In this document: one piece after another, positions 53,801 through 64,000 of the stretch
Position numbering within the stretch: position 1 is the stretch's first letter
Layout of the letters: the number at the start of each line of letters is the position of its first letter
Source: Bifidobacterium asteroides
Lineage (GTDB): Bacteria; Actinomycetota; Actinomycetes; Actinomycetales; Bifidobacteriaceae
Assembly (NCBI RefSeq): GCF_030758775.1
Contig: NZ_CP132384.1
Span: forward strand, 434,001 to 498,000
DNA: 64,000 bases
Direction: 5' to 3'
Position numbers and translations under genes: made by a program
The notes under the pieces: model-generated
Databases searched by the model: none
The model's input: only the letters and a program-made list of their open reading frames with translations
What the model was told of the DNA's origin: nothing

Positions 53801-54541
53801 ATGACTACGTCCAGTATTCACGACCAGGCCTCCCGGCGGAGGGGGAGTGTGGAAATACGACCCATGGTCTGGGCGGACATGCCCGACCTGGTGGGGACTT
53901 TTGACGCTACTTGGAAGGTGCAGGAGGATCCCGAGGGCACCGTGTCCCGGCTGAGCGCCGCCCACTTCATCCTGCACTACCTGGTGGGTACCACCAGGGC
54001 CCGGATAGCTGTCGATGGGCAGGACTTTCTGGGGGTGACCCTGCTGGCCGAGGGGGTTGGCGAACTGTGCTTCCCCCAGGCCCAAGACGAGCTGGAGCGA
54101 GTGGACCAACAGCTGTCTGCCACAACCTTGGGCGCCCAGACCCTGGACCGGGCCCGCCAGTGGCAGCTGACCGAGGTCAGGCTGGAGGAGCAGTGCGGCC
54201 TGGCGGTCCCGCCCCAGGCTGAATTGAGGCTCTTCCTGGTCTCCAGCCGTGCCCGGGGACGCGGCGTGGGCGGTTCCCTGTGGCGGGACACCCTGGAGCA
54301 TCTGGACCAGGCGGGTATCGAGCGCTTCTACCTGCATACGGATTCCTCCTGCGACGTGGGCTTCTACGACCACAAGGGCATGGAGCGGTTGGCTGAGCTC
54401 AAGGGGCGGGACCATGCGGCCTTCGCCGGGCGCGACCCCTCCGACGACCCGCAGTTCTTCGAGGGAATCGACGACATCTTCATTTACGGAGGCCGTGTGA
54501 GCGACCAGCTGGGCAAGGACGGTGATCATGGCGGCCGCTAA
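53801..54541 (+). CDS. GNAT-family N-acetyltransferase
   Basis: Predicted 246-residue acetyltransferase. The acetyl-CoA loop is visible in ELRLFLVSSRARGRGVGGSL (R/QxxGxG/A), followed by FYLHTDSSCDVGFYDHKGME, typical of motif B. The first about 130 residues also carry a half-repeat-like region with FLGVTLLAEG. The substrate is unknown. It overlaps the MFS gene by 14 bases, so an acetylated compound could be transported, but this is only inference. The ATG at 53801 has GGAG eleven bases upstream; ATG 53792 is possible. Confidence 0.75.
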   Translation: MTTSSIHDQASRRRGSVEIRPMVWADMPDLVGTFDATWKVQEDPEGTVSRLSAAHFILHYLVGTTRARIAVDGQDFLGVTLLAEGVGELCFPQAQDELERVDQQLSATTLGAQTLDRARQWQLTEVRLEEQCGLAVPPQAELRLFLVSSRARGRGVGGSLWRDTLEHLDQAGIERFYLHTDSSCDVGFYDHKGMERLAELKGRDHAAFAGRDPSDDPQFFEGIDDIFIYGGRVSDQLGKDGDHGGR

Positions 54542-55835
54542 ATCCCCCTTCCTGCGCCTGTTCACCTACCCGGGCGCCGCCGGTTTCTGCCTGTCGGCCG
54601 TCCTGGCCCGCCTGCCCCTGGGCATGATGGGTCTGGGCATCGTACTGGCCCTGAACAACATCTATGACAACTGGACCTCGGCCGGGCTGATGAGCGCCGT
54701 CTACACGCTCTGCGCGGCCCTGGTCACCCCCTTCTACGCTCGTCTGTTCGACCGGTTCGGCCAGCGTCGGGTTGGAGTGACCGCCCTGATCGTGCAGGCT
54801 CTGGCCATACTGGGATTTGCGGTGGGAGCCATGCGCCGGGTTCCCTTGGGAGTGCTCTTTGTGCTGGCGGCCCTGATGGGCCTGACCCAGTTCGCCTTCG
54901 GAGCCCTGGTGCGCACCCGCTGGGCCTGGGTGCTGCGCGATGACAAGACCAATCTGCTCAACACCGCCTACGCCCTGGAGTCAGGTCTGGACGAGTGCGT
55001 CTTCATCCTGGGGCCTATCCTCTCCGCCTACCTGGCCACCTCGGTCAGCCCGGTCTCCCAGCTCTACCTGCCCGCTCTGGCCCTGCTGGTTGGCGGACTG
55101 ACCTTCTTCGCCATGCGTTCCACCGAGCCCCCGGCCGTCGTTCGCATGGAGGCCGTCGACCAGTCGCCAGCGGATCATTCCCCGGTGGACGCCCACGGAA
55201 CCGTTCTGCCAGGTGACACTGACGGCCACCAGGGCTCGCGCTCGGCTCTGGTCTATCCGGGCATCCTCCTGCTGGTGGTGATCTTCGTCGTCTTCAACAT
55301 GAGCTTCTCGGCGGTGGACGTCTCGGTGACCGCCCTGACCAAGTCCATGGGCCGCGAGGGTGCGGTAGGCCTGCAGCTGGCCCTGTTCGCCCTGGGGTCC
55401 CTGTGTGGGGCGCTGATCTTCGGCTCGGTCAAGCTCAAAGGATCCCGCTGGCGCTATCTGACGACCTTCCTGGTGCTGCTGACCCTGGGCTACGTGGTCT
55501 TCCGCCTGGTCATGGACAACCTGGTCCTGCTGGGTCTGGCCGAGGTGCTGACCGGCCTGTGCGTCTCGCCCATCTTCGCCACCGGCAACCTGATCGTGCG
55601 CGAGAACGTGGATGCCCGGGCCCTGACCGAGGGCCTCTCCTGGCTGTCCACAGGCGGATCCATCGGCACATCCTTGGGATCAACCCTGGCCGGAGTCGCC
55701 CTGGATCAGTTCGGGCCCCACGGCGGCATGACCATCCCCGCGGTGGTCACCTGCTGCGCTGTTCCTCTGGCCCTGCTGGGCTGGGCCAGGAGCCGCAGGA
55801 GGGGTATGGTCGTGGAAAAGACCGAAAATGCATAG
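54528..55835 (+). CDS. MFS transporter
   Basis: Predicted 435-residue polytopic membrane protein with about 12 helices in two halves, separated by a charged loop around residues 200-245 (VRMEAVDQSPADHSPVDAHG). The conserved loop between helices 2 and 3 is seen as ARLFDRFGQRRVGV. Substrate unknown; drug or peptide export is possible. The start overlaps the acetyltransferase gene; GTG 54522 or ATG 54528 could be used, the latter having AAGGAC upstream. dapB follows 29 bases later with a strong ribosome site. Confidence 0.85.
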   Translation: MAAAKSPFLRLFTYPGAAGFCLSAVLARLPLGMMGLGIVLALNNIYDNWTSAGLMSAVYTLCAALVTPFYARLFDRFGQRRVGVTALIVQALAILGFAVGAMRRVPLGVLFVLAALMGLTQFAFGALVRTRWAWVLRDDKTNLLNTAYALESGLDECVFILGPILSAYLATSVSPVSQLYLPALALLVGGLTFFAMRSTEPPAVVRMEAVDQSPADHSPVDAHGTVLPGDTDGHQGSRSALVYPGILLLVVIFVVFNMSFSAVDVSVTALTKSMGREGAVGLQLALFALGSLCGALIFGSVKLKGSRWRYLTTFLVLLTLGYVVFRLVMDNLVLLGLAEVLTGLCVSPIFATGNLIVRENVDARALTEGLSWLSTGGSIGTSLGSTLAGVALDQFGPHGGMTIPAVVTCCAVPLALLGWARSRRRGMVVEKTENA

Positions 55836-55864
55836 TGAATGAACAGTCGAGAAGGAGGCAGCCG

Positions 55865-56602
55865 ATGATCCGCGTATCGGTGCTGGGCGCAGGCGGACGC
55901 ATGGGAACCGAGGTGGTGCGTGCTCTGAAGGGCGCGCAGGATATGCAGACGGCCCTGCTGCTGGGGCCGGATGACGATCCGTCGTCCATCAATCCGAGCA
56001 ACACGGATGTGGCGGTCGACTTCACCAGCCCCGATGCCGTCCTGGCCAATACCCTGACCCTGATAGGGCAGGGGGTTCACTCCGTCATAGGCACCACCGG
56101 CTGGACCAAGGAGCGTCTGGACCAGGTCAGGCAGGCTCTGGACGGCCATCCCGGGCTCAGCGTCTTCATCGCCCCCAACTTCGCCATCTCCGCAGTGCTG
56201 GCCGACCGGTTCGCAGCCATGGCTGCCCGCTACTTCGAGTCGGCCGAGGTGGTCGAGCTGCACCATCCTGACAAGGTCGATGCCCCTTCCGGCACGGCTC
56301 TGGGGACCGCTTCCGCCATCGCCGAGGCCCGCCGTCAGGCTGGCATGGGTCCCATGCCCGACGCGACCCAGCAGGCTGATGCTTCCAGGGGCCGGGTGGT
56401 TGACGGTGTCCATGTCCACGCCGTCCGGCTGCGGGGACTCAATGCGCACGAGGAGATCCTCATGGGCAACCCCGGCGAGCAGCTGACCATCCGCGCAGAC
56501 AGCTTCGAGCGTGTCTCCTTCATGCCCGGAGTCCTCCTGGCCGTGCGCCGTGCCGGGAGCATTCCCGGACTGACCGTGGGCCTGGATCACTATCTGTTCT
56601 GA
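55865..56602 (+). CDS. dapB: 4-hydroxy-tetrahydrodipicolinate reductase
   Basis: Predicted 245-residue NAD(P)H-dependent reductase of the diaminopimelate/lysine pathway. The Rossmann start VLGAGGRMGTEVVRAL, the IGTTGW stretch, APNFAISA and the active region ELHHPDKVDAPSGTALG are all present. The short actinobacterial form (about 245 residues) is matched. ATG 55865 follows AAGGAGG by six bases, one of the best ribosome sites in the window. It directly precedes dapA, giving a compact lysine/peptidoglycan precursor unit. Confidence 0.95.
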   Translation: MIRVSVLGAGGRMGTEVVRALKGAQDMQTALLLGPDDDPSSINPSNTDVAVDFTSPDAVLANTLTLIGQGVHSVIGTTGWTKERLDQVRQALDGHPGLSVFIAPNFAISAVLADRFAAMAARYFESAEVVELHHPDKVDAPSGTALGTASAIAEARRQAGMGPMPDATQQADASRGRVVDGVHVHAVRLRGLNAHEEILMGNPGEQLTIRADSFERVSFMPGVLLAVRRAGSIPGLTVGLDHYLF

Positions 56603-56630
56603 TATCCGCAAGAGCGTCCCCTTCTGCAAG

Positions 56631-56636
56631 TAGCGT
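56631..56636 (+). promoter_or_regulatory. -10 element, leaderless dapA
   Basis: TAGCGT ends seven bases before ATG 56643. The preceding CTGCAAG and this hexamer are repeated before the second dapA (63346-63351). Confidence 0.45.
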
Positions 56637-56642
56637 GAAGAT

Positions 56643-57548
56643 ATGACTGAGACTGGTGTCCATCTGCTTCCTCCTGCCCCGTTTGGCCGGGTGATCCCCG
56701 CCATGATCACGCCTATGAATAAAGACGGATCCGTTGATTACGAGGCTGCCGCCAATCTGGCCCGGACCCTGGTGGCCGATGGGGCTGACGGCATCCTGGT
56801 CAACGGCACCACAGGCGAGTCTCCCGTCACCCACATGGAGGAGAAGGTCAACCTGGTCAGGGCCGTCAAGGATGCCGTCGAAGTGCCTGTCATCTCCGGA
56901 GCGGGATCCAACGACACCGCGCACACGGTACGGATGGTGGAGATGACCCAGGAGGCCGGGGCCGATGCCCTGCTGGTGGTCATGCCCTACTATTCGCGGC
57001 CCTCCCAGGATGGGGTGGTGGCCCACTTCCGCTCGGTCTGCCAGTCGGCTCAGCGACCGATTATTCTCTACGATGTGCCTGGACGGACCGGACTGCACGT
57101 CGAGCTGGACACCTACCGGCGGCTGGCCGAGCTGGACGGGGTAACAGCCGTCAAGGATGCCACAGGCGACCTGGCCTCCATGCCCCGCAAGCGCCAGGAG
57201 ACCGGCCTGACCTGGTATTCAGGTGACGATGGCCTCTATCTGCCCTTCCTGGCCCTGGGCGCGGTAGGCATCATTTCGGTGATCGCCCATGTAGCCTCCG
57301 GGCCTATGAAGCGCCTGGCCGATGAATTCGATGCCGGTGACCTGGATGGCGCAAGGAATTTGGCTGCACGTCTGGATCCGCTGGTCCAGACTCTGAATGG
57401 CCAGGGTCAGCAGGCCGTCATGGCCAAGGCTGCTCTGAAGGCAGCCGGAAGACTGGATCAGACCGCCATGAGGCTGCCCAATCTGGGTCCCGATGAGGAT
57501 CAGGTGGCTCTTGCCCGTAAGGGCATGAAGGCTGCTGGACTGATCTGA
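56643..57548 (+). CDS. dapA: 4-hydroxy-tetrahydrodipicolinate synthase, copy 1
   Basis: Predicted 301-residue aldolase that condenses pyruvate with aspartate semialdehyde. The Schiff-base lysine is in AVKDATGDLAS, the threonine pair in NGTTGESP and the tyrosine in MPYYSRPSQDG. A second copy begins at 63358. Over the 213 residues available the two proteins align without gaps and differ at about 32 positions by my count. The promoter-like CTGCAAGTAGCGT before each ATG is shared. A palindrome follows the stop at 57562-57577. This copy lies in the expected dapB-dapA order. Confidence 0.95.
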   Translation: MTETGVHLLPPAPFGRVIPAMITPMNKDGSVDYEAAANLARTLVADGADGILVNGTTGESPVTHMEEKVNLVRAVKDAVEVPVISGAGSNDTAHTVRMVEMTQEAGADALLVVMPYYSRPSQDGVVAHFRSVCQSAQRPIILYDVPGRTGLHVELDTYRRLAELDGVTAVKDATGDLASMPRKRQETGLTWYSGDDGLYLPFLALGAVGIISVIAHVASGPMKRLADEFDAGDLDGARNLAARLDPLVQTLNGQGQQAVMAKAALKAAGRLDQTAMRLPNLGPDEDQVALARKGMKAAGLI

Positions 57549-57561
57549 ATTACTCCTAAAA

Positions 57562-57577
57562 GCAATAGCGCTATTGC
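57562..57577. other. 16-base perfect palindrome after dapA
   Basis: GCAATAGCGCTATTGC, 14 bases after the dapA stop. It could be a short terminator stem or a binding site for a dimeric regulator. It has no U-run, only CCCCTTCT downstream. Confidence 0.5.
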
Positions 57578-57919
57578 CCCTTCTCCAGCCACGTCCACCG
57601 GGTACAGCAGGTGGGAGTAAACCGTTACTGGTTGTTGGCCGCTCCCGCCGGCTGTTAAGGCAAGGGGGGTCTGTGCCGGGGGATGTTCAGCAGTGTTCGG
57701 CTTGAAGGTTGTGGGTAAGAGTCTTTCAATAGGGCTTGAATTATTCCAAAGCTGAGGCTTTTGGGTGACCTTATGCAACAAGGTGGTTATTTGGTTTCCC
57801 ACTTTTCGATGATGCTGGGTAAATAGAACGGCATCCTGCCGGTTTCGAAGAGGTTGAAATTCGTTTCTTGTGAAATCCGATCCGTGGTCAAAGACGAGGT
57901 CGATGCCTTAAAGCCTCAG

Positions 57920-57988
57920 GTCTATAATCAGAATAAAGGTGGTGTCGGGTGGAAGACGTCGTTGTCTGAGGCCCTTGGTTATTTGTGA
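57920..57988 (+). pseudogene. fragment resembling ParA Walker A region
   Basis: Open stretch translating as VYNQNKGGVGWKTSLSEALG followed by YL and TGA. ParA/Soj ATPases begin with a strand and KGGVGKT; here a Trp is inserted between G and K and an Asn within NQK. There is no start codon with a ribosome site and no downstream ParA sequence. It is probably a relic of a plasmid or integrative element. Only about 20 residues support this. Confidence 0.3.
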
Positions 57989-58062
57989 AGCCTTTCTCGC
58001 CGTTAGCAGGGTTCTTGGGTTCCGTGCTTGCGCAGGTGCAGGGCGAAGGGTGAGTGGTGGTG

Positions 58063-58659
58063 ATGTCTGTGTCCAGCGGGGTGTCGGATGGCGCCGAGGA
58101 TCGGGTTGATGCGTTTGTCCTGTCGTCGGTGATGTCGAGTGTGGTCGGGAGCGTCCCGCATGCGCGGCCTGGCGCCCGTGAGTTCTCCTTGGGCGGGGTC
58201 CTGTGGAAGACGGTGCTGTACGCGTTGACCTATGTGGCCGGGTTCGCCTGCGGCTGGTTCCTCCTGTTTGACCAGGACCAGGATTGGGTGCGCATGCGGA
58301 TAGGTCAAGCTACGTTTCCCGTACTGTTCTCTATTTTTGCTGTGACTATCCTGTTGGGGCGGTATGAGGATGGGAAGGGGTGTCCGGGGCCTTGGTTTGT
58401 GGTGTTGTGCGTGGTGCCGTCCTGGATGCTGGCCAAGGCGACGGGGTCTGCTGGCGCGTCCTTGTTCTGGTGCTGCGTGGTGGGCGTCGTCGGCGCCTTG
58501 TGGTTCGTGCTGGACATGTGGGCGATCGGGAAGTGCGCGAGCACACATCGTGACGCGGCTTTCGAGTGGCTGGCGGCCTGGGCGCTGGTGTTCGATCTGA
58601 TCGTGCTGATCGCCTCCCTCCTGGGAGCCTCCAATGATGACGACGATGCCAGCCGGTGA
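58063..58659 (+). CDS. polytopic membrane protein, island family A, copy 1
   Basis: Predicted 198-residue membrane protein of a family with three members in this island. Helices are seen at about 52-70 (LYALTYVAGFACGWFLLF), 85-103, 115-140 and 145-165, and a last one after the conserved RDAAFEWLAAWALVFDL. Relative to the other copies it lacks about 60 central residues (two helices). The N-terminal 45 residues are soluble and variable. I do not recognise the family. GAAGGG lies upstream; GTG 58054, 58057 or 58060 are alternative starts. The following DUF805-type gene begins 110 bases later. Confidence 0.7.
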   Translation: MSVSSGVSDGAEDRVDAFVLSSVMSSVVGSVPHARPGAREFSLGGVLWKTVLYALTYVAGFACGWFLLFDQDQDWVRMRIGQATFPVLFSIFAVTILLGRYEDGKGCPGPWFVVLCVVPSWMLAKATGSAGASLFWCCVVGVVGALWFVLDMWAIGKCASTHRDAAFEWLAAWALVFDLIVLIASLLGASNDDDDASR

Positions 58660-58718
58660 AGCCGGACGGCGGGCTGCGCCATGGGTGTGTTTGCGTTGAT
58701 GTCGATATTGGATGTTCC

Positions 58719-58739
58719 GTTCCGACAATTCGTCGGGAC
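58719..58739. other. inverted repeat before DUF805-type copy 1
   Basis: GTTCCGAC, loop AATTC, GTCGGGAC with one G-T pair. It lies about 30 bases before the ATG at 58770. Confidence 0.4.
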
Positions 58740-58769
58740 GGGCTTATGAAGAAAGTGAAGGTGAGGATT

Positions 58770-59339
58770 ATGGCCAGTGCCTTGTTATCGAAGAGGCCGC
58801 CTCGTGTGGATGTGATGAAGGGGTACGAGCCCATGTACGATGCGACCATGCAGGAGTGCATGCAGCGGCCCTTCTACCTGTATGCGAGGGGGAGGGGGCG
58901 TTCCTGCCGCAAGGAGATATGGGTTTTCGCCGCGTTCATCTGGGTCTTGGACACCTTCCTGACCCGCTTGTTCTCTTCGGGTCTCTTGGCCGTCATACCG
59001 GGGCTGTTCTCCCTGGCGGTTCTGGTGCCTATGTATGCCCTGATGGTGCGGCGTCTGCATGATCTGGCCCTGTCGGGGTGGTTGGCGCTCGTCCCCTATG
59101 TGCTGGAGGTGGTGGGCGTGGGTCTGATTGTCGGTCCGATGGTGTCGGATGCCTTGGAAGGGCTGGATCCGTCCGCCCCTTCGCCTACGGGGATCGTCAT
59201 CCTCCTTCTGGCTGTGGTAGTCCGGCTGGCCATCATGTGCGTTCCCTCGCGTCGCCGTCATCCAGTTGTCGATAACGGAAGCCTCGGTGCGAGTCAGACT
59301 GGCACGGCACAGTATCCAGGGGACCCGAACGGACAGTGA
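58770..59339 (+). CDS. DUF805-type membrane protein, copy 1
   Basis: Predicted 189-residue membrane protein. A conserved cytoplasmic N terminus (RPPRVDVMKGYEPMYDAT) leads into the DUF805 signature RPFYLYARGRGRSCRKEIWV, then three or four helices with RRLHDLALSGW in the loop between them. The C-terminal tail is polar (VVDNGSLGASQTG). The second copy at 60543 is similar along its length. The start ATG 58770 was chosen because the second copy begins at the equivalent residue and GGTGAGG precedes it. DUF805 proteins have no established function. Confidence 0.82.
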   Translation: MASALLSKRPPRVDVMKGYEPMYDATMQECMQRPFYLYARGRGRSCRKEIWVFAAFIWVLDTFLTRLFSSGLLAVIPGLFSLAVLVPMYALMVRRLHDLALSGWLALVPYVLEVVGVGLIVGPMVSDALEGLDPSAPSPTGIVILLLAVVVRLAIMCVPSRRRHPVVDNGSLGASQTGTAQYPGDPNGQ

Positions 59340-59340
59340 C

Positions 59341-59363
59341 CCCTCTCCTGTAACAGGAAAGGG
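59341..59363 (+). terminator. hairpin after DUF805-type copy 1
   Basis: CCCTCTCCTG, loop TAA, CAGGAAAGGG; nine pairs with one mismatch, starting two bases after the stop. No U-run. A related hairpin CCTGC-TTTC-GCAGG is at 62192-62205. Confidence 0.4.
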
Positions 59364-59484
59364 TGAACCTCGACGATGCGGGATGGAAAGAGACCTGCAT
59401 GAACGGCACTGATGCAGGACCGGAATCGACGGCTTGGCGGGCCGGACGGCGAATTCGAGGCCTTAAACAGGATGGTGGTGCGTG
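59364..59484 (+). repeat. conserved leader element, copy A
   Basis: About 120 bases before the second family A gene, closely matching 62216-62333 before the third. Both contain GATGCGGGATGG, the inverted repeat CCTGCAT (59394-59400) / ATGCAGG (59412-59418), then GACCGGAATCGACG. The match continues into the coding sequence. Confidence 0.75.
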
Positions 59485-60264
59485 ATGGCTGATGGTGTTT
59501 CCGGTTCCTTGCGGCTTCCTGCGGGGAGGTCCTGGCTGCAGAGCGCGTCTTCGATCATGTCGCGGGTGGCGGGGTGCGCGCGTCATGCGCCCGCGGGTGA
59601 GCGTGTCTTTTCGCGTGCCGGCGTGGTGCGCAAGCTGGCGGTGTACGGGGCGGCCTTTCTGGCGGGGTTTGTGCCGGGCTGGGCGTTCCTGTACGACCAG
59701 GATGAGCTGTGGGTGCGGTACCGTTTTGCTCTGTTTCTTCTGGTGGGCCTGTTCTCCATTTTTGCGATGGCGTGGTTTTTAGGCCGGTTCGAGGGCCGTG
59801 GGGGGCGTCCGGGGTTCTGGTGTCTGGCTTTGACGATGCCGCTGATGCCCTGCTGGGGGGTGGTGTTCGGCGCGATTACTGGCATGTATCCGGGGGTGAT
59901 GCGCTGGGTGTTGGTGTCGGTGGCCGTGTTGGTGGTTGCCGGGGTGACCTGGCTGCGGTTCGTGTCGGATCGGGTGCATAGCCGTGTGGCGGCGTGGGCG
60001 GCTTCGGCTGTGTCGTGCGTGGTGCCGTCGTGGATGCTGTGCCTGTTGTTCGGGGGCTCTCCATTGTCGTGCCTGCCCTGGTGCATAGCGGTGGGCGCGA
60101 CGGGCGCCTTGTGGTTTCTGCAGGACCTGTGGGCTATCGATTATTGCGCGGGCGACGATCGCGATGCCTCCTTCGAGTGGCTGGCGGCCTGGGCGCTGAT
60201 CTTCGACCTGATGACCCTGGTGGCCGCCCTGGCACGCGGCGGCACCGCCGCACAGGATCAATGA
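59485..60264 (+). CDS. polytopic membrane protein, island family A, copy 2
   Basis: Predicted 259-residue membrane protein, the full-length member of the family. Helices are at about 53-70 (AVYGAAFLAGFVPGWAFLY), 80-100, 112-130, 140-158, 170-190 and 200-222; the conserved end has DLWAIDYCAGDDRDASFEWL and AAWALIFDLMTLVAALARGG. Compared with copy 1 it has an extra central pair of helices. At 59855-59860 it has six G, keeping the frame open; copy 3 has seven. ATG 59485 follows GTG 59482. It is preceded by an element of about 120 bases shared with copy 3. Function unknown. Confidence 0.75.
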   Translation: MADGVSGSLRLPAGRSWLQSASSIMSRVAGCARHAPAGERVFSRAGVVRKLAVYGAAFLAGFVPGWAFLYDQDELWVRYRFALFLLVGLFSIFAMAWFLGRFEGRGGRPGFWCLALTMPLMPCWGVVFGAITGMYPGVMRWVLVSVAVLVVAGVTWLRFVSDRVHSRVAAWAASAVSCVVPSWMLCLLFGGSPLSCLPWCIAVGATGALWFLQDLWAIDYCAGDDRDASFEWLAAWALIFDLMTLVAALARGGTAAQDQ

Positions 60265-60542
60265 GGGGGTTGCTGGTAAGGGAAGGAAGGTTGACGTACC
60301 TGTCGCGCATGTGGTCTGCTTGGCCGCAGTCGGGTTGGATGCAGGCTGTTTTGTTTGCTACTGCGCGGCGGCAAGTGGAGTCCTGTAGTATAAGTAATCG
60401 TTCAGGCTTTTACTGGGCTTCAGGCCTTACGTGAACGATATCTACAGCCGTAATGCAATCTACGCTGGTTGTCGACAATGAAGTTGGTCGCGGCGGAATC
60501 TGTTCTGGTTGGCCGCTCGAGTTGCATGGAAGGAAAGGGACC
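60265..60542 (+). other. 278-base gap between island genes
   Basis: No gene seen. It contains TTGACG (60291-60296) without a matching -10, and TATAAG (60389-60394) without a -35. The ribosome site GGAAAGGGA at its end belongs to the DUF805-type gene. Confidence 0.4.
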
Positions 60543-61112
60543 ATGGCTGTTGCCTTGTTTGAAAATAGACCGCCTCGTGTGGCAGAGATGAAGGGTTTCG
60601 AACCCATGTATGACGCTACATTTCGAGAATGTCTGCAGCGGCCGTTCTACCTGTTTGCCCGGGGTCGGGGGAGATCGTGCCGCAAGGAGATATGGGTGTT
60701 CTTCATCGTTCTATCAATTGTAGAGCAGGGCCTGAGTAAGGTCTGCGGCGGGGGATCCTGGGCTCTCATCCCCCTGGTCTTCGACCTGATCATGGTGGTG
60801 CCAGAGTATGCTCTGGAGGTGCGGCGTCTTCATGATTTATTGCTGTCGGGATGGCTGACTTTGATACCGTACGGTCTTATGGTTATAGCCACGATTGGTC
60901 TGGTGAAATCTCGAATGTTGACCATAGGTGGCGGTCCTTTGCTCTTGGCTGTCATCCCGCTGCTTGTGGCGATAGTGATTCAGCTGGTCATCATGTGCAC
61001 GCCTTCCCGTCATCGCCGTCTGTCTTTTGACAACGGGGTAATCGACAACGGAGTAATCGACAACGGGACAATAGGGGCGGGAGTGAACCAGTCGGGTACT
61101 ACCCGACCTTGA
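60543..61112 (+). CDS. DUF805-type membrane protein, copy 2
   Basis: Predicted 189-residue paralogue of the 58770 gene, same length. It shares the N-terminal block (RPPRVAEMKGFEPMYDAT), the DUF805 signature RPFYLFARGRGRSCRKEIWV and RRLHDLLLSGW with helices around it. The C-terminal tail has DNGVI repeated three times (see the repeat at 61029), where copy 1 has a single DNG. ATG 60543 follows GGAAAGGGA. Copy divergence suggests the duplication is not recent. Confidence 0.82.
   Translation: MAVALFENRPPRVAEMKGFEPMYDATFRECLQRPFYLFARGRGRSCRKEIWVFFIVLSIVEQGLSKVCGGGSWALIPLVFDLIMVVPEYALEVRRLHDLLLSGWLTLIPYGLMVIATIGLVKSRMLTIGGGPLLLAVIPLLVAIVIQLVIMCTPSRHRRLSFDNGVIDNGVIDNGTIGAGVNQSGTTRP
61029..61073 (+). 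repeat. three 15-base coding repeats
   Basis: GACAACGGGGTAATC, GACAACGGAGTAATC and GACAACGGGACAATA in tandem, encoding DNGVI, DNGVI and DNGTI at the C terminus of the DUF805-type protein. Unit number could vary between strains without a frameshift. Confidence 0.8.
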
Positions 61113-61153
61113 CTGACTAGCCTGCACGGGTGGATTTATATAAGGAGACTGGG

Positions 61154-61678
61154 ATGACTGATACTGCTGCGGATGTGGGAGGACAAGGAACCGCTGGGAC
61201 GAGTGTGGATGAGCAATTATTGCAAGGCCTTCCAACTCCCATTGCCCGCATAATACGACTGCTCGCTCAGCGGGGGATACCCTCGTACGTCAATGCCAGC
61301 GGCGGTCCTGTACTGGTGCCGCTGGTCGATTGCGGCATTACTTTTGTAATGAGCAAAAGTCTGGATTCCATTGGTTTCACAAGTCTGTGGAGCCGGGGAT
61401 TCAGCTCCGCCAGGTATCGGGATGCGGTGAATGTCTGTACTGAATGGAACCGATCAGTTGGATATCTCAAGGCCTATGCCACCGAACCTTCCTTAGAGCA
61501 GAACCAGGCCGTCAGGATAGCGGGAGTCGGGCAGATTATGCGCGACGAGCGGGATGAGGTACTGGGACAGCGTCTCGATGATTCCATCTATCTGATACAG
61601 AATCTTTATGCTTGGGTGAATGAGCAGTGCCCGGATCCCATACGCATACCGAATGCGCCATACGGAAGAGGGGCATGA
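61154..61678 (+). CDS. YbjN-like soluble protein 1
   Basis: Predicted 174-residue soluble protein with the general look of the YbjN (sensory-regulator-like) fold: a helix PIARIIRLLAQRGIPSYV, a beta meander, then a helix with VNVCTEWNRSVGYLKAYA and a C-terminal helix. The identification is by pattern and uncertain. The codon use is less GC-rich than in core genes. ATG 61154 follows AAGGAG by six bases. It precedes the second YbjN-like gene by only four bases, so both are probably made together. Confidence 0.6.
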   Translation: MTDTAADVGGQGTAGTSVDEQLLQGLPTPIARIIRLLAQRGIPSYVNASGGPVLVPLVDCGITFVMSKSLDSIGFTSLWSRGFSSARYRDAVNVCTEWNRSVGYLKAYATEPSLEQNQAVRIAGVGQIMRDERDEVLGQRLDDSIYLIQNLYAWVNEQCPDPIRIPNAPYGRGA

Positions 61679-61682
61679 ACAA

Positions 61683-62114
61683 ATGGAACAGCCGATGAAA
61701 TCCGTCGTTGACGGGAAGAGAATACAGCAGTGGTTGGATGCCCAAGGATACCGTGTCGAATATCATGAGCAGGCCTGGATCGGTTTATGGGGGAATATCG
61801 CGCTCGATTTCAGTGTCCGTGGCGAGCATGATAAGTATCTGGTGGTTCATGGGACTGAGCAGGGCAGTCATCCGAATGGCCAGCATGATTTGCTTGAGGA
61901 TGTCTGCAATGCCTGGAACCGGTACTATGAGGGGCCGGGTGCCTATTTGCAGAGTTCCGAGAACGGCTTGATCTTCCACACGTTGTTCGTGGTGAACTGC
62001 CAGGGCGGTATGGATGATGACCAGTTCGATCGCCTGATGAAGTATGCCATGGCGGGTTCGGAAGGTTTCCTTGGCTTTGCCCGGGAGCAGCTGTCGAGGA
62101 TGAGGATGGCCTAG
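61683..62114 (+). CDS. YbjN-like soluble protein 2
   Basis: Predicted 143-residue soluble protein with the same order as its neighbour: helix DGKRIQQWLDAQGYRVEY, strands, then DVCNAWNRYYEGPGAYLQSS and a C-terminal helix (FDRLMKYAMAGSEGFLGFAR). The shared VCxxWNR motif supports distant homology with the gene just before it. The start ATG 61683 has GAGGGG upstream. YbjN proteins resemble secretion chaperones in fold, but no role is shown. The region after its stop holds a leader element for the third membrane-protein copy. Confidence 0.6.
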   Translation: MEQPMKSVVDGKRIQQWLDAQGYRVEYHEQAWIGLWGNIALDFSVRGEHDKYLVVHGTEQGSHPNGQHDLLEDVCNAWNRYYEGPGAYLQSSENGLIFHTLFVVNCQGGMDDDQFDRLMKYAMAGSEGFLGFAREQLSRMRMA

Positions 62115-62215
62115 GACGAAGTGCAGAGTCAGACGTGACCGTGCTTCCGGGAAGGTATACGGAAGATGTCGGTGTCTGATGTCCTTGGGGTCCTGCTTTC
62201 GCAGGTGTGGGGCGA

Positions 62216-62333
62216 ACTCCGGCGATGCGGGATGGGAAGAGGCCTGCATGAACGGCACTGATGCAGGACCGGAATCGACGCTCTGGCGGGTCGAGTGCCG
62301 GATTTGGGGCTTTGAGCAGGAGAGTGGTGTGTG
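62216..62333 (+). repeat. conserved leader element, copy B
   Basis: Matches 59364-59484, with the inverted repeat CCTGCAT (62243-62249) / ATGCAGG (62261-62267). A further upstream hairpin CCTGC-TTTC-GCAGG (62192-62205) is also similar to sequence at 58011-58050 before the first copy. Confidence 0.75.
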
Positions 62334-63114
62334 ATGGCTGATGGTGTTTCCGGTTCCTTGCGGCTTCCTGCGGGGAGGTCCTGGCTGCAGAGCGCGTCTT
62401 CGGTCATGTCGCGGGTGGCAGGGTGCGCACGTCATGCGCCCGTGGGGGAGCGTGCCTTTTCCCGTGCCGGTGTGGTGCGCAAGCTGGCGGTGTACGGGGC
62501 GGCCTTTCTGGCGGGGTTTGTGCCGGGCTGGGCCTTCCTGTACGACCAGGAGGAGCAGTGGGTGCGCGGCCGTTGCATCCAGTTTCTTCTGGTGGGCCTG
62601 TTTTCGGGTTTTGCGATGTGGTGGTTTCTGAGCCGGTTCGAGAGCCGTGGGGGGCGTCCGGGGTTCTGGTGCCTGGCGCTGACGATGCCGATGATGCCCT
62701 GCTGGGGGGGTTGTGTTCGGTGCGATGACCGGCGCGAATCCGGGGGTGATGCGTTGGGTGTTCGTGTCGGTGGCTGTGCTGGTGGTTGCCGGGGTGACTT
62801 GGCTGCGGTTTGTGTCGGATCTGGTGCGTGTCCGTGTGGCGGCGTGGGCGGCTTCGGCTGCTTCGTGTGTGCTGCCGTCGTGGTTGGTGTGTCTGTTGTT
62901 CGGAGGTTCCCCCCTGTCGTGCCTGCCCTGGTGCGTGGCGGTGGGCGCAACCGGAGCCTTGTGGTTTCTGCAGGACCTGTGGGCTATCGATTATTGCGCG
63001 GGCGACAATCGTGACGCCTCCTTCGAGTGGCTGGCGGCCTGGGCGCTGATCTTCGACCTGATGACCCTGGTGGCCGCCCTGGCACGCGGCGGCACCGCTG
63101 CACAAGGGCAATGA
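62334..63114 (+). pseudogene. polytopic membrane protein, island family A, copy 3, frameshifted at poly-G
   Basis: Close paralogue of the 59485 gene, interrupted by one extra base. A run of seven G (62704-62710) replaces six, so the frame shifts after PMMPCWGG. Reading on gives an unrelated tail ending at 63014, about 226 residues in all. The other frame continues the family sequence from about 62713 to 63114 (GVMRWVFVSVAVLVV, RDASFEWLAAWALIFDLMTL). With six G a full-length 259-residue protein would result. The start ATG 62334 has AGGAGAG nine bases upstream. Phase variation, a sequencing error or simple decay are all possible. Confidence 0.78.
62704..62710 (+). repeat. G7 homopolymer in coding sequence
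   Basis: Seven G where the paralogue at 59855-59860 has six. One base fewer restores the family reading frame. Confidence 0.85.
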
Positions 63115-63357
63115 GCTTGCCCCGGGGGGATGCTGCTCTCTGCCCGGCTGAGTAGTGCCAGGTGATGGATAGACGCGGATCGAACGCGCAGCGTGGGAGG
63201 CGGCAGGGTGGCCGGGCTTGCCCTGCCTTCTGGCTTATGCTACTGGGAAGCGCCTCTTTCCCCTTCTGTTGATTTGGGCAGGGACCGTGACTGACAGTGT
63301 GAGGGGGGAGGGGTGTCGCGAGGGTGATGAGTCCCCATCTGCAAGTAGCGTTGAAGT
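63115..63357 (+). other. 243-base gap before second dapA
   Basis: No gene seen. It ends with TCCCCATCTGCAAGTAGCGT, nearly identical to the sequence before the first dapA, which ends the non-homologous part of the island. Confidence 0.5.
63346..63351 (+). promoter_or_regulatory. -10 element, leaderless second dapA
   Basis: TAGCGT ends seven bases before ATG 63358, same as in the first copy. Confidence 0.45.
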
Positions 63358-64000
63358 ATGTCTGAGCTTCAAACCCATCTGTTGGACAAGGCCCCGTTTG
63401 GGCGGGTCGTGCCGGCCATGGTCACCCCTATGAACCATGACGGGTCCGTGGATTTTGAGGCCGCTGGCAAACTGGCCCGCAGACTTGTCGCTGATGGGGC
63501 GGATGGGTTGCTGGTCAACGGCACCACCGGCGAATCTCCGGCCACCCACATGGAAGAGAAAGTCGATTTGGTGCGAGCCGTAAAGGCTTCGGTGGACGTG
63601 CCGGTCATCTCGGGTGCGGGCTCCAATGACACGGCCCATACGGTTCGTATGGCCGAGATGACCCAGGAAGCCGGGGCGGATGCGCTCCTGGTGGTCATGC
63701 CTTACTATTCCAGACCCTCCCAGGATGGGGTGGTAGCGCATTTCAGGTCCGTCTGCCAGTCTGCGGATCGTCCCATTGTGCTCTACGATGTACCCGGCCG
63801 CACCGGGTTGCACGTGACTGTGGATACCTACCGTCGTCTTGCCGAATTGCCGCATGTCGAGGCGGTCAAGGATGCCACTGGTGATCTGGCCGCAGTTCCT
63901 ATCAAGCGCAAGGAGACGGGGCTGATCTGGTATTCCGGTGATGACGGGCTGTACCTGCCCTTCCTGGCCTTGGGTGCCGTCGGCATCATATCGGTCATGG
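63358..64000 (+). CDS. dapA: 4-hydroxy-tetrahydrodipicolinate synthase, copy 2 (partial)
   Basis: First 214 codons of a second dapA, cut by the window end. The same catalytic motifs are present: NGTTGESP, MPYYSRPSQDG and AVKDATGDLAA. It aligns without gaps to the first copy, with most differences conservative, so both are probably functional. The leader (CTGCAAGTAGCGT and seven-base spacing) is duplicated with the gene. The two copies flank the accessory island, so one may have arrived with it, or the island may have entered between tandem copies. Confidence 0.93.
   Translation, partial: MSELQTHLLDKAPFGRVVPAMVTPMNHDGSVDFEAAGKLARRLVADGADGLLVNGTTGESPATHMEEKVDLVRAVKASVDVPVISGAGSNDTAHTVRMAEMTQEAGADALLVVMPYYSRPSQDGVVAHFRSVCQSADRPIVLYDVPGRTGLHVTVDTYRRLAELPHVEAVKDATGDLAAVPIKRKETGLIWYSGDDGLYLPFLALGAVGIISVM

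What the first reader, a model, noticed from the sequence alone, without database searches (positions are those of the whole stretch)
57549..63357. Accessory island held between two dapA copies
A 5.8-kb block of non-housekeeping genes sits exactly between two dapA genes that are about 85% identical over the readable part (about 32 differences in 213 residues, hand count) and share the short promoter sequence before the ATG. This could be an insertion through homologous recombination with dapA-bearing foreign DNA, or a tandem duplication later filled. Direct repeats of this size could also let the island be lost, although 15% divergence would slow that.
Basis: partly seen in the sequence, partly recalled or inferred. 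Interest (0 to 1): 0.75.

Follow-up and report, generated by a model that had tools for sequence, protein, structure and literature searches.

The report
Leftover immunity genes between two dapAs
In this bee-gut Bifidobacterium, the genes between two unlike copies of dapA look like what remains of a toxin-exporting type VII secretion locus: the weapon is gone and its probable membrane immunity proteins stay, as if the strain had disarmed but kept its armour.

Summary
In detail: two dapA genes (84.6% identical over 214 readable residues, 81.6% full length) flank 5.8 kb of low GC and odd codon use. Among 19 Bifidobacterium genomes read at this locus, four close relatives have dapB-dapA1-rnj with nothing inserted, seven (this one included) have dapA1-[rnj fragment]-island-dapA2-rnj, and one has the island with dapA2 only. 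In four of these eight the island is a type VII secretion (T7SS) locus ending in an effector gene and a membrane-protein array. The window island is a deletion derivative: a 36-nt rnj remnant, the broken 3' end of an effector gene, then the array (tmA/tmB, DUF805, YbjN proteins). Effector tail type tends to match the next membrane gene (5 of 7 whole effectors, the other 2 uninformative; 7 of 9 remnants). Best reading: an orphan T7SS immunity array, like staphylococcal 'antitoxin islands'. The immunity function is inferred. Which dapA is native stays open.

The parts
56643..57548 (+). dapA1 (dapB-adjacent copy, 301 aa)
   Evidence: Pfam DHDPS 240.7 bits; group 1
57579..57614 (+). rnj (RNase J) remnant, 36 nt at 97%, ends at the same rnj position as in G011, G017, G020 and G021
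   Evidence: island positions 34-69; position 1 is window 57546
57740..58038 (+). Broken 3' end of a T7SS effector gene, tail type A (pieces matching residues 5-41, 138-178 and 177-195 of a 195-residue tail)
   Evidence: tblastn E 3e-16; inner joint 41|138 shared with G020 and G021
58063..58659 (+). tmA: polytopic membrane protein, shortened by a 183-nt in-frame internal deletion relative to the G021 copy; predicted immunity protein
58656..59339 (+). DUF805 protein a; its longest ORF overlaps the tmA stop
   Evidence: PF05656 43.7 bits, cut-off 25.7; follows tmA in 6 of 6 clear cases
59485..60264 (+). tmB: open 259-aa membrane protein, seven long helices in a low-confidence model; predicted immunity protein
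   Evidence: narrow family: 12 of 27 genus genomes, 1 weak match among 393 other class genomes
60453..61112 (+). DUF805 protein b
   Evidence: PF05656 40.6 bits; follows tmB in 6 of 6 clear cases
61130..61678 (+). YbjN-like protein a
   Evidence: PF10722 19 bits, below cut-off 22
61620..62114 (+). YbjN protein b (an ATG at 61683 would avoid the overlap; start not tested)
   Evidence: PF10722 46.9 bits; only YbjN match in the genome
62331..63114 (+). Second tmB copy, frameshifted in its middle
63115..63357 (+). Sequence upstream of dapA2; its 3' part matches G002 (75%) and G008 (76%)
63358..64000 (+). dapA2 (rnj-adjacent copy), continues beyond the window
   Evidence: TIGR00674 247 bits; group 2

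Best explanation
The block is a deletion remnant of a T7SS toxin-immunity locus that sits between two allelic lineages of dapA. SHOWN BY SEQUENCE: (1) In relatives the same place holds a full T7SS locus with an effector gene followed by an array of membrane proteins. (2) Here everything from the rnj fragment to within the effector gene is missing; the effector's broken 3' end and the array remain. (3) The unit was combined with a second dapA and a repeated piece of rnj, so a dapA-rnj block, not dapA alone, was involved. INFERRED: (4) The effectors act against related bacteria, probably on the membrane; they have a WXG100-like secretion domain, a conserved hydrophobic stretch and a variable tail. 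(5) The membrane protein encoded just after the effector gene, perhaps with the DUF805 protein encoded next to it, protects against secreted effector. (6) Strains that lost the weapon keep the array because neighbours still carry it. (7) Most likely the island reached this place by duplicative insertion of DNA through dapA-rnj homology, and it now spreads as an allele by homologous recombination in the flanking genes. My confidence: steps 1-3 about 0.9, steps 4-6 about 0.6, step 7 about 0.5.
For: Full T7SS locus between dapA1 and dapA2 in G011, G013 and G017, and in G039 as far as its separate contigs show; EssC profile 584 bits (below its curated cut-off of 778), FtsK/SpoIIIE, WXG100, FHA, Ser/Thr kinase, T7SS_signal on the G011 effector. 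rnj remnant after dapA1 in 7 of 7 genomes that keep dapA1 and the island; in five it ends at the same rnj position. Effector-tail remnant in the window. No EssC of this type and no effector N-domain in the own genome: each is in 6 of 27 genus genomes, the same six, while the TM family is in 12 of 27. Tail-TM pairing of whole effectors: A then tmA in G011 and G039; B then tmB in G008, G017 and G039_C11. DUF805a after tmA 6 of 6, DUF805b after tmB 6 of 6 clear cases. Allele boundaries. dapA2 94.1% to G002 against gyrB 89.5% and dapB 65.3%. Parallels in print: TspA with an array of 10 membrane proteins (PMC7456083, passages); ExiC/ExiD, a pair of polytopic membrane immunity proteins also found as orphans in antitoxin islands (PMC12744356, passages).
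Against: No experiment shows toxicity or immunity. Two of nine effector remnants break the pairing (A-like tail then tmB, in G005 and G011), though these pieces lie in the last ~51 residues, where tails A and B resemble each other (37%). Two of seven whole effectors are uninformative: G013 (masked gap) and G022 (TM scores 103 against 99). In G039_C11 the tmB match is only 135 nt at a contig end. Two of the three TM genes here are damaged, and the tmB of G020, another orphan array, is frameshifted too, so the array may be decaying rather than kept. Conserved order could reflect shared descent. Structure models are poor (mean pLDDT 54 and 44), and a Foldseek search gave nothing at E <= 0.001. 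The effectors lack an extended glycine zipper. The rnj fragment lacks the rnj start in the two genomes with the longest remnants, so a simple one-step crossover in rnj is not proved.
Confidence: 0.7

Rival explanations
1. dapA2-rnj is the native end and the left part (uvrD to dapB, dapA1 and an rnj fragment) is the foreign allele, inserted beside a T7SS that lay upstream of uvrD; the old uvrD-dapB and most of gene X were then lost.
For: G008 has the full T7SS about 5 kb upstream of uvrD and an order dapB-X-dapA-rnj; G010 has the orphan array upstream of uvrD. dapB of this genome is only 65.3% and 68.4% identical to that of G002 and G008, against gyrB 89.5% and 94.5%. A remnant of X lies just upstream of dapA2 in G039. 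The careful tree does not exclude G002 dapA as sister to all core dapAs (51/83).
Against: All four empty-site core genomes carry dapA1 joined to rnj. The dapA1-like tract in three dapA2 copies blurs the rooting. Three T7SS or array positions (G008, G010, G022) differ from one another, so no home locus is shown.
Confidence: 0.35
2. The TM, DUF805 and YbjN proteins are structural or assembly parts of the T7SS, not immunity proteins.
For: TM genes occur in all 6 genomes with this EssC, and a YbjN match in all 6; [quoted passage not shown]
Against: TM genes persist without this EssC in 5 of 27 genomes (G000, G005, G010, G020, G021). TM copy number varies (five in G021, two in G008 and G017). TM type tends to follow effector tail type. 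YbjN is missing from two of the five orphan arrays (G005, G020), so it may indeed belong to the machinery rather than to immunity.
Confidence: 0.2
3. Simple decay: a T7SS locus was lost and the leftovers have no function.
For: tmA has a 61-codon deletion, the second tmB is frameshifted and the effector is broken; the tmB of G020 is frameshifted; dapA1 decays in G011, G013 and G020.
Against: One tmB, both DUF805 and both YbjN ORFs are open here; in the orphan arrays of G010 and G021 the TM genes found are open.
Confidence: 0.25
4. Recent tandem duplication of dapA filled later by other genes.
For: Two similar genes in direct orientation; the rnj fragment shows that a block was repeated.
Against: The copies differ by 26% nt and fall into two groups shared across species.
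Confidence: 0.05

Closest known systems
Staphylococcal antitoxin islands with ExiC/ExiD (EsxX immunity)
   Same: Polytopic membrane immunity proteins, working as a pair, also kept in genomes without the toxin or the secretion machinery (PMC12744356, passages read).
   Different: Bacillota; LXG effector with an extended glycine zipper. Here actinobacterial, WXG100/T7SS_signal-type effector, TM + DUF805 neighbours, no test of function; sequence relation to ExiC/ExiD was not tested.
Staphylococcus aureus TspA / TsaI (DUF443) array
   Same: T7SS membrane-acting effector followed by a repeat of polytopic membrane proteins (10 genes, five predicted helices; PMC7456083, passages read).
   Different: No DUF443 match here; other helix number; no activity shown.
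T7SS/WXG100 clusters of Bifidobacterium choerinum and B. dentium
   Same: T7SS in the genus, reported with unknown role (PMC4965825, passages read).
   Different: Effector-immunity cassettes and orphan arrays are not described in the passages read; species differ; the gene sets were not compared.
Acquired interbacterial defence (orphan immunity) systems of Bacteroidales
   Same: Immunity genes kept apart from their toxins, protecting against neighbours (PMC10470768, passages read).
   Different: T6SS, nuclease toxin, association with mobile elements; no integrase or recombinase among the window island ORFs scanned.

Membership tests
T7SS locus (T7SSb-like, EssC) | EssC/EccC FtsK-type ATPase and WXG100 proteins in the locus | tested here: not met
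   Window genome: not met, it has only other FtsK-type proteins. Relatives G008, G011, G013, G017, G022, G039: met, though TIGR03928 at 584 bits is below its curated cut-off of 778 for the one EssC scanned (G011).
T7SS effector gene | N-terminal WXG100 / T7SS secretion domain and variable C-terminus | tested here: not met
   Window: only a broken tail, no N-domain in the genome. Relatives: PF21725 32.7 bits (cut-off 27) on the G011 effector; the G017 effector is below both cut-offs (PF21725 18.4; WXG100 26.1 against 27.3).
Orphan T7SS immunity array (antitoxin island) | Immunity-type genes without the toxin or machinery in the same genome | tested here: met
   TM family present, EssC of this type and effector N-domain absent in G000, G005, G010, G020, G021. 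That the genes are immunity genes is the inference under test.
Orphan T7SS immunity array (antitoxin island) | Gene products neutralise a cognate toxin | not testable with these tools
   Only tail-TM pairing supports it.
TsaI / DUF443 | DUF443 domain | tested here: not met
   17 TM proteins scanned against Pfam; only BaxI_1 (8 of 17, best E 7.5e-4) and TauE (1 of 17) appear at E <= 0.1.
Bax inhibitor-1-like membrane proteins | PF12811 match over the cut-off, BI-1 fold | tested here: inconclusive
   Weak matches in 8 of 17 (the one with printed scores is 17.4 bits against a cut-off of 26.2); model too poor and Foldseek empty at E <= 0.001.
Integrative or transposable element | Integrase, transposase or attachment repeats at the island ends | tested here: not met
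   None among the Pfam matches of the 8 island ORFs scanned; no tRNA in the window; no inverted repeats of 20 nt or more in window 54000-64000. Larger islands of relatives were not scanned whole for such genes.

The most novel reading that the evidence does not exclude
Bee-gut bifidobacteria fight each other with a T7SS whose effector types A and B are each matched by a two-protein membrane immunity module of a new kind (TM protein + DUF805 protein). The dapA-rnj interval is the exchange site through which weapon-plus-armour, armour-only and empty alleles circulate among species, with the second dapA as the recombination handle.
Probability: 0.35. Interest if true: 0.7.

Novelty: new variant of a known kind. 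Interest (0 to 1): 0.52.

Why it matters
If right, it extends armour-without-weapon islands, known from staphylococcal T7SS, to an actinobacterial gut symbiont and proposes new immunity families that ordinary assays can test. It also links strain coexistence in the honeybee gut to a natural series of alleles (empty, armed, disarmed but protected) at one chromosomal site, whose shared junctions let the order of events be read. Searches for T7SS together with B. asteroides or with Bifidobacterium and Apis mellifera found no paper, in a library of open-licence papers only.

Tried and rejected
Structure: AlphaFold2 for tmB (17 sequences, mean pLDDT 54.1) and for the effector (3 sequences, 43.6) gave weak models; a Foldseek search of the first gave nothing at E <= 0.001. 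I use these models for nothing beyond a count of helices.

A first gene caller failed on masked bases and was replaced by a longest-ORF caller, which picked antisense ORFs in GC-rich stretches; gene identities therefore rest on homology. One search prints window coordinates 3 too high, because island position 1 is window 57546; the numbers here are corrected.

Recombination of dapA1 with dapA2 as the source of empty sites: rejected for the two genes examined along their length, and by the spacers of all four. Mobile element: no integrase among the ORFs scanned, no inverted end repeats. A single crossover in rnj alone as the full mechanism: kept only as an option, because the longest rnj fragments lack the rnj start. 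A strict rule that tail type decides the next TM type: two exceptions among nine remnants, so it is stated as a tendency.

Dropped before counts: in the pairing count, G013 (masked gap) and G022 (scores 103 to 99) of seven whole effectors; in the DUF805 count, two G022 clusters with near-equal scores (one of them tmA before a DUF805 scored nearer b) and one end-of-contig fragment of G039. The dapA locus was read in 18 of the 27 genus genomes plus one named contig (L056), which may be one of the nine not read: G006, G007, G012, G015, G018, G019, G022, G024, G040.
Full report
WHAT IS THERE. The window lies at 434001-498000 of a 2,083,947-base single-contig genome. Named relatives found with dapA1 are the Bifidobacterium asteroides group and similar species; that these live in bees is from general knowledge. 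The order is uvrD - acetyltransferase-like - MFS - dapB - dapA1 - island - dapA2 - rnj (dapA by profile, the other names by recognition and conserved order). Both dapA genes are whole and the only profile matches in the genome. The island has GC 59.5%, below all 259 tiles of equal size in the rest of the window, and unusual codon use.

RELATIVES. I read this locus in 19 genomes, own included. Single dapA directly between dapB and rnj: 5 outlying species (G004, G009, G016, G023, B. psychraerophilum) and 4 core relatives (G001, G003, G010, G014). A 2.7-kb stretch with one reversed gene X (830 aa in G002, DUF4855) between dapB and dapA: G002 and G008. Island between two dapAs, the first whole or decayed: 7 (G000, G011, G013, G017, G020, G021, G039/ESL0200; in the last the two sides lie on separate contigs, so adjacency is inferred). 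Island with dapA2 only: G005.

THE LARGER ISLANDS ARE A T7SS LOCUS. In G011, G013, G017 and G039 the island carries WXG100, a Ser/Thr kinase, a 1,797-1,799-aa Ig-like protein, an EssC-type ATPase (1,523 aa in G011, G013 and G017; matched over residues 1-1513 in G039), an FHA protein, a second small WXG100-like protein, a protein of about 206-212 aa and an effector of about 500 aa, then membrane proteins. The stretch up to dapA2 is 23.8 kb in G011 and 19.8 kb in G013 (both from dapB, with 1,674 masked bases in G013) and 21.3 kb in G017 (from dapA1). G008 has the same locus about 5 kb upstream of uvrD, and G022 on another contig. EssC of this kind is in 6 of 27 genus genomes, and two more have distant versions. 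The effector N-domain is strong in the same 6 of 27. The TM family of the array is in 12 of 27, one of them only 37% alike (G018). So five genomes (G000, G005, G010, G020, G021) have the array without this EssC and without the effector N-domain. In a class sample, one weak match among 393 other genomes. YbjN is in 9 of 27: the six with EssC, plus G000, G010 and G021.

HOW THE WINDOW ISLAND AROSE. After the dapA1 stop come 30 nt of residual spacer, then 36 nt of rnj (97%) at 57579-57614. All seven genomes with dapA1 and the island have such an rnj remnant; in G000, G011, G017, G020 and G021 it ends at the same rnj position, while ESL0200 and G013 hold other, longer pieces. In ESL0200 the remnant is identical over 456 nt to its own complete rnj, against 77-90% to the other 18 rnj genes compared, which points to conversion or a recent repeat. 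The left junction of the window matches G011 up to about 57654, and from about 57685 the window matches the 3' part of the effector region of G013 and then G011 (coordinates corrected by -3). The T7SS core that lies between these points in G011 and G013 is absent. The effector tail carries an inner joint (tail residues 41|138) shared by G000, G020 and G021, so that deletion is older than this genome or has been exchanged. G010 has an empty dapA-rnj site but an orphan array upstream of uvrD, at 16.4-21.1 kb of a stretch in which uvrD starts at 38.6 kb.

TWO dapA LINEAGES. IQ-TREE parts dapB-side copies plus all four empty-site copies (11 rows) from rnj-side copies plus G002 and G005 (9 rows) with 100/100 support. 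In that tree the root falls among group 2 rows, probably because dapA2 of G011, G013 and G017 has a dapA1-like tract at about nt 500-800; FastTree placed the groups as sisters. dapA2 of this genome is 94.1% identical to dapA of G002, more than gyrB (89.5%) and far more than dapB (65.3%), but the careful tree leaves the place of G002 open (51/83). In 300-nt steps, this genome is about as close to empty-site as to island genomes up to dapA1 (G020 and G021 slightly closer in dapA1), resembles only island genomes from the dapA1 stop to about the rnj start, and beyond that G014, an empty-site genome, is often the closest. The block thus behaves as an allele exchanged by homologous recombination. 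Which side is native remains open (rival 1).

FUNCTION. In G008, G011, G017 and G039_C11 the TM gene starts within about 15-25 nt of the effector stop. Effector tails A and B differ except for a related last ~51 residues (37%, E 2.5e-6). Whole effectors, seven in all: A then tmA in G011 and G039; B then tmB in G008, G017 and G039_C11 (the last a 135-nt match at a contig end); G013 and G022 uninformative. Remnants, nine in all: A then tmA in G000, G005, G010, G011, G020 and G021; B then tmB in G021; against: A-like then tmB in G005 and G011 (all). DUF805a follows tmA in 6 of 6 and DUF805b follows tmB in 6 of 6 clear cases, with three unclear ones left out. These counts are not phylogenetically independent. 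The effectors have a conserved hydrophobic stretch at about residues 232-300 (alignment by eye), but only short matches to a glycine-zipper pattern in A and none in B. The nearest printed parallel is EsxX of S. aureus, countered outside the cell by two polytopic membrane proteins that also occur as orphans in antitoxin islands (PMC12744356, passages); TspA with its ten DUF443 genes is the second (PMC7456083, passages). Recombination among T7SS immunity paralogues is known (PMC9484751, abstract). By analogy I predict that tmA/DUF805a and tmB/DUF805b protect against effectors A and B. In this genome the B pair is open, the A pair has a shortened tmA, and the extra tmB copy is frameshifted, so any present protection would be against type B first.

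JUDGEMENT. The feature is real and was well spotted. The specific reading (armour kept, weapon lost) is new for this group as far as my searches go (open-licence library only). T7SS in Bifidobacterium was reported in 2016 with role unknown (PMC4965825, passages). A paper on genomic islands of bee bifidobacteria and lactobacilli (PMC4449606, passages) does not hold the word dapA in its main text. It is a new variant of a known kind, with the function unproved.

Noticed in passing
L053:462-701 and G002/G008 between dapB and dapA: Gene X (DUF4855, 830 aa in G002, reversed) lies between dapB and dapA in G002 and G008; its N-terminal remnant lies just upstream of dapA2 in ESL0200.
   Followed up: partly
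L045:10920-11396: The rnj fragment after dapA1 in ESL0200 is 100% identical over 456 nt to that strain's complete rnj, while the other 18 rnj genes compared are 77-90% alike.
   Followed up: partly
dapA2 of G011, G013, G017 (L033:8913-9821, L035:5704-6612, L039:7758-8666): A tract of about 300 nt resembles dapA1, a probable gene conversion between the diverged copies.
   Followed up: partly
L023:15277-16341 (just beyond the window end): The dehydrogenase downstream of rnj has two allele classes among most close relatives (about 95-99% or about 81-82% aa to this genome), not aligned with the presence of the island.
   Followed up: no
G008 C1, dapB (L029:3673-4416): G008 has gyrB 94.5% but dapB only 68.4% identical to this genome, so uvrD-dapB may exist as two allele classes in the group.
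   Followed up: no
L033:6159-6325: In G011 a dapA fragment and an rnj fragment lie inside the island before a second effector-tail plus tmA, as if the left junction had been duplicated.
   Followed up: no
G000:C1:293206-293607: A third DUF805 gene of the genome, with the strongest family score (72.6 bits), lies far from the island.
   Followed up: no
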